Part shown: piece by piece, positions 14,176-20,248 of the stretch | Position numbering within the stretch: position 1 is the stretch's first letter | How the letters are laid out: each line of letters starts with the position of its first letter | From: Microbispora sp. H11081 | GTDB taxonomy: Bacteria; Actinomycetota; Actinomycetes; Streptosporangiales; Streptosporangiaceae | Assembly (NCBI RefSeq): GCF_012999535.1 | Contig: NZ_JABBWV010000006.1 | Coordinates: 310,001 to 374,000 of the forward strand | DNA length: 64,000 nucleotides | Direction: 5' to 3' | Translations under genes and position numbers: made by a program | The notes under the pieces: model-generated | Database searches by the model: none | Seen by the model: the letters and a program-made list of their open reading frames with translations, nothing else | Told to the model about the DNA's origin: nothing

Positions 14176-14221
14176 TTGACAATAGGCGGCATTTCACGGG
14201 ACAGTCATGAAAACGTATCCA
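14176..14221 (+). promoter_or_regulatory. promoter and operator-like palindrome O2 of the sugar ATPase gene
   Basis: TTGACA (14176-14181), an 18-base spacer and GACAGT (14200-14205) make a good housekeeping promoter with a start near 14212. Directly over that start lies TGAAAACGTATCCA (14208-14221), which shares the TG-AAACG-T-CCA pattern with O1. The two sites are 77 bp apart centre to centre. The arrangement suggests repression of the ATPase gene by the divergent LacI protein. Confidence 0.6.
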
Positions 14222-14254
14222 CTTCCTCTTGTCCCGGAAGCGCGAAGGACTGGC

Positions 14255-15475
<1,221 letters not shown>

Positions 15476-15481
15476 CCCCGG

Positions 15482-16552
15482 TCACCCCCGCCGCACGTGT
15501 GGCGGCGGGGGATTTCCCGCGGAGCGCGGGCGCGGCACGCGCCCGCGCTCTCGTGCGTCTCCGGACGGCGCCCGCCCGGAGACCCCCACCGGCGTCCCGC
15601 GTGCGACCTCGTCGCGCCGGGGGTGGGCATGAAGGCCGCGCCGATCGAGCGCCCGCGAGCCATCGCGGCGCATGCGGCGCGCCAGGCACGCGTGGGACAG
15701 GAACGCGGCGGAGGTGACGGCGGTGACCGTCGCCGCCGGCCCCGCGGGCACCCAGCCGAGCGCGACCGCGAGCCCGGCCGTCCCGGCGCAGGCGGCGACG
15801 CCGCACAGGGCGGGCGCGGCCCCGCGCGCCTGCCCGGGCCGCCACGGCCGCCGGACGGCGTAGGCCGAGGCCCCCACGACGGCCGCGAGCGCCGGCAGCA
15901 GCAGCCCGGCCGCGATCACGGCGGTGCCCCGCCCCGCCGTCAGCGCGGCGGCCGTGCAGGTCAGGACGAACCCGGCGAACAGCGAGCCGGACGGCCCGAG
16001 CCGGACCCTGCCCGGCGTCCTGCCGTACGGCAGCGCGGCGAGAAGCACCCCGGCGAGCGCGGCCGTGAGCACCGCGAGGAACGGGTCGCCCAGCACGAGC
16101 GCCGTCCCGGTGAGGAACGCGCCGGTGACCGCGGCCACCGCGGCCAGCGCGCCGCCGAGCCGGTCCAGCAGGCCGTACGCGTTGGTCATCGCGACGATCC
16201 ACATGACGCTGACCGGCCCGTCGAGCCAGTCGCCCGTCAAGGTCACCTGAACGCCGCACAGCACGACCCCGCCCGCCGCCACCGACTCCACGATGAGCCG
16301 CGTGGCGAGCGGCAGGGTGCCGACGTCGGCGATGAGGCCGAGCAGCGCCACCGCCGCGGCGGCCAGCAGGACCGCGCTCACCCGCCGGTCGGGCAGGCCG
16401 AGGATCGCCATCGCGGCGCCCGCCGTGGCCGCCACCAGCGTCATCCCGCCGAGATAGGGGATCGTACGGCGGACCGGGCGCAGCCCCACGGTGGCGAGCA
16501 GGCAGGCGGTGGCGCCCGCGAGCACGGGCGCCAGCGCCGGAACGGGTGTCAA
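15482..16552 (-). CDS. WecA/MraY-like polytopic membrane protein lacking catalytic residues
   Basis: A 356-residue membrane protein with about 10 hydrophobic segments and a hydrophilic tail of about 70 residues. It aligns by eye with polyprenyl-phosphate HexNAc-1-P transferases: RTIPYLGGMTLVA (canonical R-x-P-x-x-GG), LLGLIADVGTLPLATRL, TNAYGLLDRLGG and RLGPSGSLFAGF. At catalytic positions it differs: the metal-binding Asp pair of GLIDD is Ala75-Asp76, NxxNLxDGxDG is N-AYGLLDRLGG, the Asp of GDSGS is Pro, and no HIHH-type loop is present. It is probably not an active transferase. TTG 16552 overlaps the stop of the glycosyltransferase gene (TTGA) with GGGGAG upstream. Confidence 0.75.
   Translation of the reverse strand: MTPVPALAPVLAGATACLLATVGLRPVRRTIPYLGGMTLVAATAGAAMAILGLPDRRVSAVLLAAAAVALLGLIADVGTLPLATRLIVESVAAGGVVLCGVQVTLTGDWLDGPVSVMWIVAMTNAYGLLDRLGGALAAVAAVTGAFLTGTALVLGDPFLAVLTAALAGVLLAALPYGRTPGRVRLGPSGSLFAGFVLTCTAAALTAGRGTAVIAAGLLLPALAAVVGASAYAVRRPWRPGQARGAAPALCGVAACAGTAGLAVALGWVPAGPAATVTAVTSAAFLSHACLARRMRRDGSRALDRRGLHAHPRRDEVARGTPVGVSGRAPSGDARERGRVPRPRSAGNPPPPHVRRG
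15485..15511. terminator. GC-rich hairpin terminator
   Basis: A perfect 10-bp stem, CCCCCGCCGC (15485-15494) with GCGGCGGGGG (15502-15511) and a seven-base loop, ten bases after the ATPase stop. A short T run (ATTTC) follows. It also covers the last codons of the convergent minus-strand gene. Confidence 0.7.
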
Positions 16553-17718
16553 AGGCTCCCCACCTCCGACCGCGTCGCGCCGCGCAGCGCGCGGTAGAGG
16601 GCCTCGGTGTCGGCCACCAGCCGGTCCGTGCTGAAAGCGCGCCCGGTCCACGCGCGGGCCGCCTCGCCCATCCTCCGGGCCAGGCCCGGATCCACGAGCA
16701 GGCGGACGACGTGGTCGGCCATCTCGTCGGGGTCGAAATCCGTCAGGAACCCGGTGCGGCGGTCCATGACGATCTCCGGGACGCTGCCGACCCGGGTGGC
16801 CACCACCGGCAGGCCCGCCATGCCGGCCTCCACGAGCGCGAGCGGCGTGCCCTCGCTGTCGGAGGTGAGCAGCACGACGTCGGCCGCGGCGTACACCGTC
16901 TCGACGTCGCGGCGCCAGCCGAGCAGCCGGAAGGAGTCCCACATCGGCATGACGGCCCGCTCCACCTCCTCCTTCAGCTCGCCGCTGCCGCAGACGAGGA
17001 ACCGGGCGCCGGGCAGCCGGGCGAGCACCGCCCTGGCCACCTCCGCGAACCGGTCGGGCCGTTTGGCCTTCTTCAGCCGCCCGATGTACGCCACGACGGG
17101 CGCGTCGAGCGGGACGCCCAGCGCGGCGCGCGCCGGGGCGCGCTCGGGCAGCGGGCCGAGTCCGGTGCCGGGTGGGATGACGACGTACTGCTCGGGCCGG
17201 CCGATGCCGGCCGCGAGGAGGTCGTCGCGCACCCGGGCGCCGACCGTGACGATGCGGTCGGTCATCCTGGCGAGCCCGCGCTCGATGCGGACGTAGACGG
17301 CCCGCCGGAGACGGGACAGCTGCCCGTCGAGTAGGTGGCCGTGGTAGCTGTGCACCCGTGCCGCCCCGACACCGGAGAGCCGCACCGCGAGGCGGCCGAG
17401 CGTGCCCGCCTTGGTGGTCCTGGTGTGCACGATGTGCGGCCGGAACTCGCGCATCGCGTTCGTCAGCCTGAACAGGGCGCGGTAGTCGTCGGCCGGCTTG
17501 ATCGCGCGGCCGAGGCCCGGCACCCGGTGGACCGGGATCGTCGCGTCGCGAAGCTGCAGGTGGTCGCCTTCGCCGCCGTCGACGTAGCCGGTGTACAGAC
17601 GGTGGTCAAAGTCCACCGCGCTGAGCCGCTCGCAGAGCCCGGTGACCTGGGTGGCGGGACCGCTCACGTTCATCCGGGCGATTATCTCCATGACACGAAT
17701 CCGGTCGTCCGGTTTCAT
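16549..17718 (-). CDS. GT4-family glycosyltransferase
   Basis: A 389-residue GT-B fold glycosyltransferase. The N-terminal domain begins IRVMEIIARMNVSGPATQV. The C-terminal domain holds VVAYIGRLKKAKRPDRF, FLVCGSGELKEEVER, VYAAADVVLLTSDSEGTPLALVEAGMAG (the E-x7-E retaining-GT motif) and GLPVVATRVGSVPEIV. All expected motifs of an active family 4 enzyme are present. The sugar is not readable. ATG 17718 has GGAGG nearby. It overlaps the following WecA-like gene and is divergent from a nucleotide-sugar-dehydrogenase-like gene, a context that suggests cell-surface or lipid-linked glycan assembly. Confidence 0.9.
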   Translation of the reverse strand: MKPDDRIRVMEIIARMNVSGPATQVTGLCERLSAVDFDHRLYTGYVDGGEGDHLQLRDATIPVHRVPGLGRAIKPADDYRALFRLTNAMREFRPHIVHTRTTKAGTLGRLAVRLSGVGAARVHSYHGHLLDGQLSRLRRAVYVRIERGLARMTDRIVTVGARVRDDLLAAGIGRPEQYVVIPPGTGLGPLPERAPARAALGVPLDAPVVAYIGRLKKAKRPDRFAEVARAVLARLPGARFLVCGSGELKEEVERAVMPMWDSFRLLGWRRDVETVYAAADVVLLTSDSEGTPLALVEAGMAGLPVVATRVGSVPEIVMDRRTGFLTDFDPDEMADHVVRLLVDPGLARRMGEAARAWTGRAFSTDRLVADTEALYRALRGATRSEVGSL

Positions 17719-17883
17719 GCTGGCTCCTCCCTGATCATGTGGAGAAGCTAGCCCCTGTTCCCACCGCCGACGGGGTGCGCGGACGCCGCCGGAAGAGACT
17801 TTTCCCAATCCGTACCCAAGCCTTAAAGCGGACCGGTACGCCAATCCCGCAGGTGACGGCGGGGTCGTCCCTACAGTCGTAGC

Positions 17884-19122
17884 GTGGCGGAGAAGCTGGT
17901 GGTCGTGGGCCAGGGCGCGGCCGGGCTGCCCCTGGCGATGCGTGCCGTGGAGGCCGGGTTCCGCGTCGTCGGCCTGGACGAGGACGAGTGGCGGGTCAAG
18001 CGGCTGAACGCGGGGGAGCCCTGCGTCGAGGGAGTCGGCGCGGGCGCGCTGGCCGCCGCGCACGCCTCAGGCCGGTACACGGCGAGCGCCGACGTGGCCG
18101 ACGCGTCCGGTTTCGACGTCTGCGTGCTCACCGTGCCCGTGCCCGTGCGGAACGGCGCCCCCGACCTCGGCCCGCTCGGCACGGCGGCCGGCCGTACGGC
18201 CCCGTTCCTGCGGCCGGGTGCGACGGTGGTGCTGGAGAGCGTCGCCTACCCCGGCACCACGGAGGAGTTCCTGCGGCCACTGCTCGAACACGGATCGGGG
18301 CTGTGCGCGGGAGACGACTTCCACCTCGGCCACAGCCCGCGCAGGGCCGCGCCAGGCAACCCGCGCTGGCGGGTCGGCAACACGCCCAAGGTCGTCTCCG
18401 GCGTCGACGCGGCCTCGCTGCGTGCGGTGACGGACTTCTACGGCCGGCTGGTGCGGGAGACCGTCCCGGTCTCCTCGCCTCGGGTGTCGGAGTTGTGCGC
18501 CCTGCTGGAGAGCGCCCGCGCGCACGTCGACGCGGCCCTGGCGAACGAACTGTCGATGTTCGCCGCGCAACTCGGCGTCGACGTGTGGGAGGCGCTCGGG
18601 GCCGCGGCCACCACGCCCTTCGGCCATGCCGCCATGACGCCGGGCCCCGGATCCGAGGACCCCTGCCTGCCGCTCGACGTGGCGTACCTGCCGTGGGGGA
18701 TCAGGCGCTCGGTGGGACGGACCTTCCGCCTGGTGGAGGCGGCCAACGACGTCAACGCGCACATGCCCGCCCAGGTGGTCGACCGGCTGGGTCTCGCGCT
18801 CAACCGGAGGTGCCGCTCGATCAGGGGCAGCAGGATCCTGCTGCTCGGGCTGTCGCCGGTCGAGGTCGCCAAGACGCTGTGCCGGCTCGGCGCCCGGGTG
18901 CGGGCCGCCGACCCCCGCGTCGACGACTGCGGCGCCCCCGACCTCGTCGTACCGGCCGGGGTCGAGATCGTGGAGCCGGACGCCGCCGAGCTGGCGCGGG
19001 CCGACGCGGTGGTCGTGCTGGGCGGGCAGGACTGCTACGACTACGACCTCGTCCAGCGGGCGAGCAGGTTCGTCTTCGACACCCGGGGCCTGTGCCGCGG
19101 CCCGAACGTCGAACGCCTCTGA
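17884..19122 (+). CDS. UDP-sugar dehydrogenase-like protein lacking key catalytic residues
   Basis: A 412-residue protein that follows the plan of UDP-glucose/UDP-ManNAc dehydrogenases: Rossmann start VVVGQGAAGLPLA (residues 6-18), YPGTTEEFL at 122-130, and PGPGSEDPCLPLDVAYLPW with the thiolate Cys261 retained. However, SPER is SPRR (Glu to Arg153), the catalytic Lys of ELVKLLEN is Ala206 in SELCALLES, and the YKPxxxDxRESP segment of the C-terminal domain is missing (GLSPVEVAKTLCRLGA follows directly). It may bind nucleotide sugar and NAD without oxidising it. GTG 17884 lies six bases after TACAGT. Confidence 0.78.
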   Translation: MAEKLVVVGQGAAGLPLAMRAVEAGFRVVGLDEDEWRVKRLNAGEPCVEGVGAGALAAAHASGRYTASADVADASGFDVCVLTVPVPVRNGAPDLGPLGTAAGRTAPFLRPGATVVLESVAYPGTTEEFLRPLLEHGSGLCAGDDFHLGHSPRRAAPGNPRWRVGNTPKVVSGVDAASLRAVTDFYGRLVRETVPVSSPRVSELCALLESARAHVDAALANELSMFAAQLGVDVWEALGAAATTPFGHAAMTPGPGSEDPCLPLDVAYLPWGIRRSVGRTFRLVEAANDVNAHMPAQVVDRLGLALNRRCRSIRGSRILLLGLSPVEVAKTLCRLGARVRAADPRVDDCGAPDLVVPAGVEIVEPDAAELARADAVVVLGGQDCYDYDLVQRASRFVFDTRGLCRGPNVERL

Positions 19123-19921: not shown

Positions 19922-20248
19922 TCACGCCTCCGTGGTCTGGCTGATCAGCTCCTCCACCTTCGCGTTCAGGCGGGCGGCGCGGGGCCACCCGGCGTAGAGC
20001 GTGAGGAACACGACCGTCTCGCGCAGTTCGGCCGGGGTCAGCTCGCCCGAGCGCAGGGCGGTGTCGAGGTGCAGGACGAGCATGTCCTCCATGTCCTGGC
20101 CGACGAGCAGGCCGAGCAGCAGCAACCGCCGTTCCCTGACCGTGAGGACCTGCCGGGACCACACCTCGGAGAACATGCGCTCCGCCGTAGAGCCGAAGAA
20201 GCCGTCCGGCCCCTCGCCGGCGCCGTCCTCCTCGTCGACCTGCTTCAT
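19922..20248 (-). CDS. carboxymuconolactone-decarboxylase-like protein
   Basis: A 108-residue all-helical protein resembling gamma-carboxymuconolactone decarboxylase (AhpD-like fold): RERRLLLLGLLVGQDMEDML, then LHLDTALRSGELTPAELRETVVFLTLYAGWPRAARLN. It has no Cys at all, so it cannot be an AhpD-type peroxidase with a CxxC; a decarboxylase or lactonase role would rest on the conserved His/Glu region. GGGGGA precedes the ATG. It lies 48 bases upstream of the SDR gene on the same strand and may be cotranscribed with it. Confidence 0.8.
   Translation of the reverse strand: MKQVDEEDGAGEGPDGFFGSTAERMFSEVWSRQVLTVRERRLLLLGLLVGQDMEDMLVLHLDTALRSGELTPAELRETVVFLTLYAGWPRAARLNAKVEELISQTTEA

What the first reader, a model, noticed from the sequence alone, without database searches (positions are those of the whole stretch)
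15482..16552. WecA/MraY-like membrane protein that has lost its metal- and substrate-binding residues
Seen: fold landmarks are clear, but GLIDD is GLIAD, NxxNLxDGxDG is NAYGLLDRLGG, GDSGS is GPSGS and no HIHH-like loop exists. Known: these Asp, Asn and His residues bind Mg2+ and the nucleotide sugar in MraY, WecA and TagO. Inference: a non-catalytic member, perhaps a polyprenyl-phosphate-binding scaffold or flippase-like partner for the coupled glycosyltransferase.
Basis: partly seen in the sequence, partly recalled or inferred. Interest (0 to 1): 0.72.

Follow-up and report, generated by a model that had tools for sequence, protein, structure and literature searches.

The report
Inactivated WecA-like glycosyltransferase partner protein
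An actinobacterium carries a membrane protein descended from a sugar-transfer enzyme that has lost its metal- and sugar-binding residues, yet natural selection still preserves it and its gene overlaps that of a normal-looking sugar-transferase, so it probably serves as a non-enzymatic helper.

Summary
The minus-strand ORF 16552..15482 is a PF00953 protein (49 bits, cut-off 27). MraY-numbered D117, N190, D196, N255, F262 and D265, the N-loop and the HxxHR loop are gone; D118 and D193 remain. All 15 held genomes of the genus (Microbispora, judged from relatives' titles) carry it, and so do two other genera of the family. These 17 copies form one clade, sister to an intact enzyme that stands beside the same ABC-transporter flank. 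Purifying selection is clear: omega 0.14 in frame, about 1 in two shifted frames. In 17 of 17 the start overlaps the stop of a GT4 glycosyltransferase gene; in 23 relatives outside the clade, none. Intact MraY and WecA-type genes exist elsewhere in the genome.

Related genomes show exopolysaccharide clusters here at different stages of dismantling. The adjacent NDP-sugar dehydrogenase has lost its Glu, Lys and Asn too.

Best reading: a pseudoenzyme kept as a co-translated membrane partner of the GT4. Against an obligate partnership: G073 keeps the GT4 with no PF00953 neighbour. The structure prediction failed (pLDDT 45). Calls: 5, 8, 18, 29, 53, 56, 57, 64, 65, 81.

The parts
15482..16552 (-). 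pseudo-WecA ORF, TTG start at 16552, 356 aa; PF00953 without most catalytic residues
15659..16552 (-). membrane core (298 aa) used for the alignments
   Evidence: omega 0.137 over residues 10-290
15482..15658 (-). unconserved C-terminal tail, repeat-like in several relatives (NG86 omega 0.92; ML 0.43)
16325..16330 (-). A75-D76, the former DD pair (MraY D117/D118)
16148..16309 (-). most constrained block tested, residues 82-135 (TM4 - outer loop - TM5 by alignment to MraY; helix numbers recalled), omega 0.074
16151..16183 (-). NAYGLLDRLGG, residues 124-134: N190->G, D193 kept, Arg131 invariant in the clade, D196->G
15983..15997 (-). GPSGS, residues 186-190; Mg-binding D265 -> P187
16549..16552 (-). 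4-nt overlap (TTGA) between GT4 stop and pseudo-WecA start, behind a GGAGG sequence
16549..17718 (-). GT4-fold glycosyltransferase, 389 aa, E-x7-E kept (by eye), omega 0.063
17884..19122 (+). NDP-sugar dehydrogenase homologue, divergent; catalytic Glu, Lys, Asn changed, Cys and Asp kept; omega 0.063
14207..15475 (+). UgpC-like ABC ATPase, convergent flank that marks the site (not part of the system)

Best explanation
The gene encodes a pseudoenzyme: the descendant of the priming phosphoglycosyltransferase (WecA/TagO-like, PF00953) of an exopolysaccharide cluster. Shown by sequence: 17 copies that lack D265, N190 and the His loop form one clade across three genera, so those losses most simply happened once; the epimerase genes that separate GT4 and PF00953 genes in intact clusters are absent and the two frames overlap by 4 nt; the protein is under purifying selection, most strongly, among the parts tested, in residues 82-135 (predicted TM4 - outer loop - TM5). 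Inferred: it is translated together with the GT4 and acts as its membrane anchor or activating subunit, holding the GT4 near its acceptor, with the invariant Asp130-Arg131 pair stabilising the emptied active site. The GT4 would do the chemistry; priming in the cell is left to the separate intact WecA-type and MraY genes.
For: D265, N190 and HxxHR missing in 17 of 17 copies, present in 15 of 15 fully intact rows. One clade, support 100/99, sister to the G036/G090 rows. Found in 15 of 15 held genomes of the genus. In-frame omega 0.137 (LRT 300 against 1) with 1.05 and 0.99 in two shifted frames; block 82-135 omega 0.074. 4-nt overlap with the GT4 in 17 of 17 copies, 0 of 23 other rows. Eleven gap intervals, some overlapping, in residues 10-235 of 15 genus rows while the frames stay open. 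Arg131 in 17 of 17, Asn in 15 of 15 intact rows. Intact MraY and WecA-type genes and an EPS-type paralogue in the same genome.
Against: No interaction, expression or activity data. G073 has the GT4 (74% identical) at this site with no PF00953 match in 16 kb by the A1 profile and none genome-wide to the window protein, so this GT4 can persist alone. G078 has a partly altered PF00953 gene at the site without the GT4, though of another branch. Selection is weaker than on the GT4 (0.137 against 0.063). Three genus rows have lost the last helices and G048's copy lacks the first. D117 is present in 3 of 17 and D118 in 14 of 17 rows, and two rows keep a full DD pair. The structure model is unusable.
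Confidence: 0.48

Rival explanations
1. It is a slowly decaying remnant of a dismantled exopolysaccharide locus, still made because it sits in the GT4 operon, with no present function or a dwindling one.
For: The site shows many stages of erosion: cluster with intact enzyme in G036, GT4 plus GGSGS in G090, GT4 without PF00953 in G073, one epimerase and an altered motif in G052, PF00953 without GT4 in G078; the last two belong to other branches. The D117 site drifts among A, D, E, C, H. Tail and last helices vary. The neighbouring dehydrogenase shows intact, intermediate and degenerate forms.
Against: In-frame omega 0.137 with shifted-frame controls near or above 1, apart from the antisense frame that shares the third position; 15 of 15 held genus genomes keep it; invariant Arg131; 4-nt overlap in 17 of 17.
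Confidence: 0.22
2. It pairs with another PF00953 protein of the cell (WecA-type, MraY or the EPS-type paralogue) as an inactive subunit and tunes its activity.
For: MraY and DPAGT1 are called dimeric (PMC12724621, start of abstract in a listing); dead paralogues that activate partners are known in trypanosomes (PMC5201418, PMC3663545, listing and start of abstract). Four PF00953 genes over the cut-off and one below it occur in this genome.
Against: Five of 15 genus genomes keep the pseudoenzyme without the EPS-type paralogue, so that partner is not required. The operon link is to the GT4.
Confidence: 0.12
3. It is a polyprenyl-phosphate-binding scaffold or flippase-like partner.
For: The family acts on polyprenyl phosphate and the TM5-side block is the most constrained part tested.
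Against: The His-loop segment is deleted and D117, proposed to act on the lipid phosphate (PMC5039524 passages), is lost in 14 of 17 rows. No flippase-like match in Pfam or NCBIfam.
Confidence: 0.08
4. It is still an enzyme with changed chemistry, using the two retained Asp residues.
For: D193 equivalent kept in 17 of 17, D118 equivalent in 14 of 17.
Against: D265 and N190 lost in 17 of 17, D196 in 16 of 17, F262 in 14 of 14 rows without a gap there, His loop deleted.
Confidence: 0.04

Closest known systems
PF00953 polytopic phosphoglycosyltransferases (WecA, TagO, MraY, DPAGT1)
   Same: Family match over the cut-off; a profile of A1, which mixes intact and degenerate rows, finds MraY structures at E 3e-18; motif positions line up.
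   Different: Lacks D117, N190, D196, N255, F262, D265, the N-loop and the His loop.
EPS-cluster PF00953 enzymes of Streptosporangiaceae (C12:171 kb of the same genome, L007; L039 in G036)
   Same: 42% identity to L007; L039 is in the sister group and lies by the same ABC-LacI-peroxidase flank (its other flank was not reached).
   Different: Those keep all motifs. L039's cluster is GT4 - epimerase - epimerase - PF00953 - P-loop protein, with a LMW phosphatase and a LytR/CpsA/Psr gene on the other strand; here GT4 and a degenerate dehydrogenase are the only such neighbours seen.
Catalytically dead paralogue activators (trypanosome prozyme, deoxyhypusine synthase paralogue)
   Same: Conserved protein without catalytic residues; a works-like analogy only.
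   Different: There the partner is a paralogue; here the linked partner is another enzyme family. Seen as listing and start of abstract.
EpsW-EpsZ of Myxococcus (PMC12802240, abstract) and EcpK pseudokinase (PMC12004946, title and start of abstract in a listing)
   Same: Non-catalytic proteins acting on polysaccharide initiation or assembly.
   Different: Other protein families and host (recalled; not compared here).

Membership tests
PF00953 polytopic phosphoglycosyltransferase (by descent) | HMM score over the curated cut-off | tested here: met
   49.1 bits, cut-off 27; 17 of 17 clade members match PF00953 at E<=0.01; the 15 genus copies are over the cut-off
PF00953 polytopic phosphoglycosyltransferase (as active enzyme) | DD pair (MraY D117/D118) | tested here: not met
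   A75-D76 in the window; D117 site is D in 3 of 17 rows
PF00953 polytopic phosphoglycosyltransferase (as active enzyme) | NxxNLxDGxDG loop (N190, D193, D196) | tested here: not met
   N190 0 of 17, D196 1 of 17, D193 17 of 17
PF00953 polytopic phosphoglycosyltransferase (as active enzyme) | Mg-coordinating Asp (D265) in GD(T/S)GS | tested here: not met
   0 of 17; fully intact rows 15 of 15
PF00953 polytopic phosphoglycosyltransferase (as active enzyme) | His loop (HHH / HIHH / HxxHR) | tested here: not met
   0 of 17; 18 of 18 rows of A1 outside the clade have HxxHR
PF00953 polytopic phosphoglycosyltransferase | Ten-helix MraY fold | tested here: inconclusive
   helical model but pLDDT 44.7, pTM 0.33; no fold search was run on it
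PF00953 polytopic phosphoglycosyltransferase | HexNAc-1-P transfer activity | not testable with these tools
   needs biochemistry
Conserved pseudoenzyme | Purifying selection despite lost active site | tested here: met
   omega 0.137, LRT 300 against omega 1; other frames 1.05, 0.99, 4.8, 5.5, and 0.175 in the antisense frame that shares codon position three
GT4 partner subunit | Physical or functional dependence of the GT4 on it | not testable with these tools
   only gene overlap seen; G073 shows the GT4 without it

The most novel reading that the evidence does not exclude
Two enzymes of one polysaccharide pathway, the priming phosphoglycosyltransferase and the NDP-sugar dehydrogenase, were both turned into non-catalytic subunits or sensors around a single surviving GT4 glycosyltransferase, giving a new kind of glycosyltransferase complex in which the membrane part is a dead WecA and the dehydrogenase reports nucleotide-sugar or NAD state.
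Probability: 0.2. Interest if true: 0.82.

Novelty: new variant of a known kind. Interest (0 to 1): 0.6.

Why it matters
If the protein works without catalysis, it is a natural separation of the structural from the chemical role of the WecA/MraY family, and makes testable whether priming transferases also organise downstream glycosyltransferases at the membrane. Related genomes offer intact, altered, dead and absent versions at one site. The parallel change in the neighbouring dehydrogenase is unusual.

Tried and rejected
Chance ORF or frameshift artefact: rejected by 17 open copies and the in-frame selection signal. Assembly error: rejected because the same substitutions recur in separate Microbispora records. 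Asp ligands restored elsewhere by another alignment: not seen across 35 rows, although the F262/R184 column is uncertain where L028, L041 and L053 have small gaps. Defence system: no PADLOC match at 0.01 for four proteins. Plasmid carriage: no tblastn match. Spread beyond the family: in a class sample of 296 genomes 10 matched at E<=1e-20; five are of the genus and the other five keep the motifs by eye. In the order sample of 121 genomes 42 matched at 1e-10; among loci returned I found 12 new intact rows by eye, L091 was not read because the script picked another frame, and matches without a locus were not examined. In the family sample of 80 genomes 16 matched at 1e-8. Heterodimer with the EPS-type paralogue as a requirement: rejected by five genomes without it. 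Structure: model too poor, so no fold search. NG86 omega (about 0.5) was replaced by a codon model with shifted-frame controls; the tail is 0.43 by that model, so not strictly neutral. Promoter and terminator scan of 15440-18000: none found. Literature: seven searches listed no paper whose title or abstract start describes a dead WecA/MraY homologue of this kind; the library lacks most subscription papers and I did not read the listed papers beyond those named in the report.

Full report
What is there. The finding's coordinates hold an open reading frame on the minus strand, TTG at 16552 to the stop at 15482. Its start overlaps the stop codon of the upstream gene (TTGA), behind a GGAGG sequence. 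The upstream gene, 17718..16549, is a GT4-fold glycosyltransferase. Divergent from it is an NDP-sugar dehydrogenase homologue, 17884..19122. The eight relatives found in named genomes are all Microbispora, a genus of Streptosporangiaceae, so I call the window's genus Microbispora; no call names it.

The residues. PF00953 matches with 49.1 bits. MraY roles come from passages of PMC6606608 (D117, D118 and D265 critical, D265 binds Mg; T75, N190, D193, G264 pocket; K70, G194, L195, D196, F262 uracil pocket) and PMC5039524 (D117 and the lipid phosphate, HHH motif). N255 as a ligand is recalled. In alignment A1 of 35 rows, 17 rows are the degenerate group, 15 are fully intact and three partly altered (L040, L048, L051). 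Degenerate versus fully intact rows: D117 3/17 v 15/15; D118 14/17 v 15/15; N190 0/17 v 15/15; D193 17/17 v 15/15; D196 1/17 v 15/15; N255 0/17 (two gaps) v 15/15; F262 0/17 (three gaps) v 15/15; D265 0/17 v 15/15; HxxHR 0/17 v 15/15. Two degenerate rows, L018 and L041, keep both Asp of the DD pair. The residue after D193 is Arg in 17/17 and Asn in 15/15. A1 holds five of the ten EPS-type paralogues found in the genus; the other five were read by eye and are intact.

Other copies in the genome. PF00953 finds four genes over the cut-off and one below: MraY on C1 (NCBIfam mraY 307 bits, cut-off 192), a WecA-type gene on C50 and an EPS-type paralogue at C12:171 kb (both best matched by the wecA model but below its cut-off; all motifs read; the paralogue is 42% identical to the window protein), the window gene, and a weak relative at C12:15 kb (19 bits). 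Over 15 held genus genomes the census by score class gives MraY 15, WecA-type 15, EPS-type 10, window-type 15, weak relative 12; motifs of the MraY and WecA-type genes were read only in G000. Five genomes (G005, G006, G007, G012, G013) keep the window-type gene without the EPS-type one.

Selection. Six row pairs of the genus under a codon model give omega 0.137 for residues 10-290 (LRT 300 against omega 1), 0.074 for residues 82-135 and 0.43 for the tail (four pairs). The same DNA in other frames gives 1.05 and 0.99, two frames above 4, and 0.175 in the antisense frame that shares the third codon position, as expected. Neighbours by the same method: ABC 0.027, LacI 0.037 (five pairs, two with saturated distances), GT4 0.063, dehydrogenase 0.063, SDR 0.066, and the small gene at 19922-20248 0.157. 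The gene is constrained, but less than most neighbours. NG86 gave about 0.5 for the core and 0.92 for the tail.

Coupling. In 17 of 17 degenerate copies the start overlaps the GT4 stop by 4 nt; in 0 of 23 other rows does it. In G090 the GT4 stop lies 158 nt upstream.

Origin. A tree of 40 rows puts the 17 in one clade (100/99), joined at 100/98 by L039 (G036, intact) and L040 (G090, D265->G). A GT4 tree of 20 rows groups ten GT4s of this site (100/99); G052's GT4 falls instead with EPS-cluster GT4s, as its PF00953 gene does, and G078's PF00953 gene is on a further branch. So the site was not filled by one lineage only. Gene maps share flanks: ABC ATPase, LacI regulator and glutathione peroxidase on one side, SDR and AAA/M41 protease genes on the other (labels; the small gene called CMD in my scripts had no Pfam match at 1e-8 and that label is recalled). 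Both sides were seen in the window, G004, G007, G010, G013, G073 and, without the AAA gene, G053, G052 and G078; only the ABC side in G036 and G090; only the AAA side in G048. At the site: G036 GT4 - epimerase - epimerase - PF00953 - P-loop protein, with phosphatase and LytR/CpsA/Psr genes on the other strand; G052 one epimerase-like gene called (not scanned) and a motif altered to NSFARLDNVDG; G090 GT4 and PF00953 with GGSGS; G078 PF00953 with GLLGDM and no GT4; G048, G053 and Microbispora GT4 plus the dead protein; G073 GT4 without any PF00953 match.

The neighbour. Aligned to solved UDP-sugar dehydrogenases (4r16), the window's dehydrogenase has Arg for the catalytic-loop Glu, Ala for Lys and Ser for Asn, and lacks GGH before the Cys; Cys and Asp remain (roles of these residues recalled). 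In 13 of 13 aligned rows from 13 of the 15 genus genomes the Glu, Lys, Asn and GGH are gone. G048 and G064 have intact versions and G073 an intermediate one. So two enzymes of one locus have lost active-site residues.

Interpretation. The data show a conserved protein without a plausible active site, descended from a priming transferase, under selection and overlapping a GT4 gene. That it anchors or activates the GT4 is inference. Strongest against it: the GT4 lives alone in G073, and the site looks eroded in many genomes. I keep decay as the main rival at 0.22.

Limits. Papers: passages of PMC5039524, PMC6606608 and PMC11915815; abstract of PMC12802240; the others as search listings only.

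Noticed in passing
window 17884-19122 (+): NDP-sugar dehydrogenase homologue lacks the catalytic Glu, Lys, Asn and the GGH before Cys in 13 of 13 aligned genus rows, yet omega is 0.063; intact in G048 and G064, intermediate in G073.
   Followed up: partly
G000:C12:15432-15935 (L005): Distant PF00953 relative below cut-off (19 bits) with motifs YDD, NLANLFDLRPG and GDAGAN; found in 12 of 15 genus genomes. Function unclear.
   Followed up: no
window 15482-15658: The tail of the ORF is variable, with RLRHD-like repeats in several relatives, and the ORF ends 7 nt from the stop of the convergent ABC gene.
   Followed up: partly
L057:6213-7388 and L058:7932-9068: GT4 genes of G053 and G048 have changed the FHGHLLHG-like motif (FHAPYPHG, FHTPLPRG), so the GT4 may be changing too in these two genomes.
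   Followed up: no
L016 and L017, start of the ORF: Tandem PALTSI/PALTSV-like repeats extend the N-terminus of the pseudoenzyme in two relatives.
   Followed up: no
L118:6858-7664: In G073 a methyltransferase-domain gene (PF08241) lies between the dehydrogenase and the GT4 at the same site.
   Followed up: no
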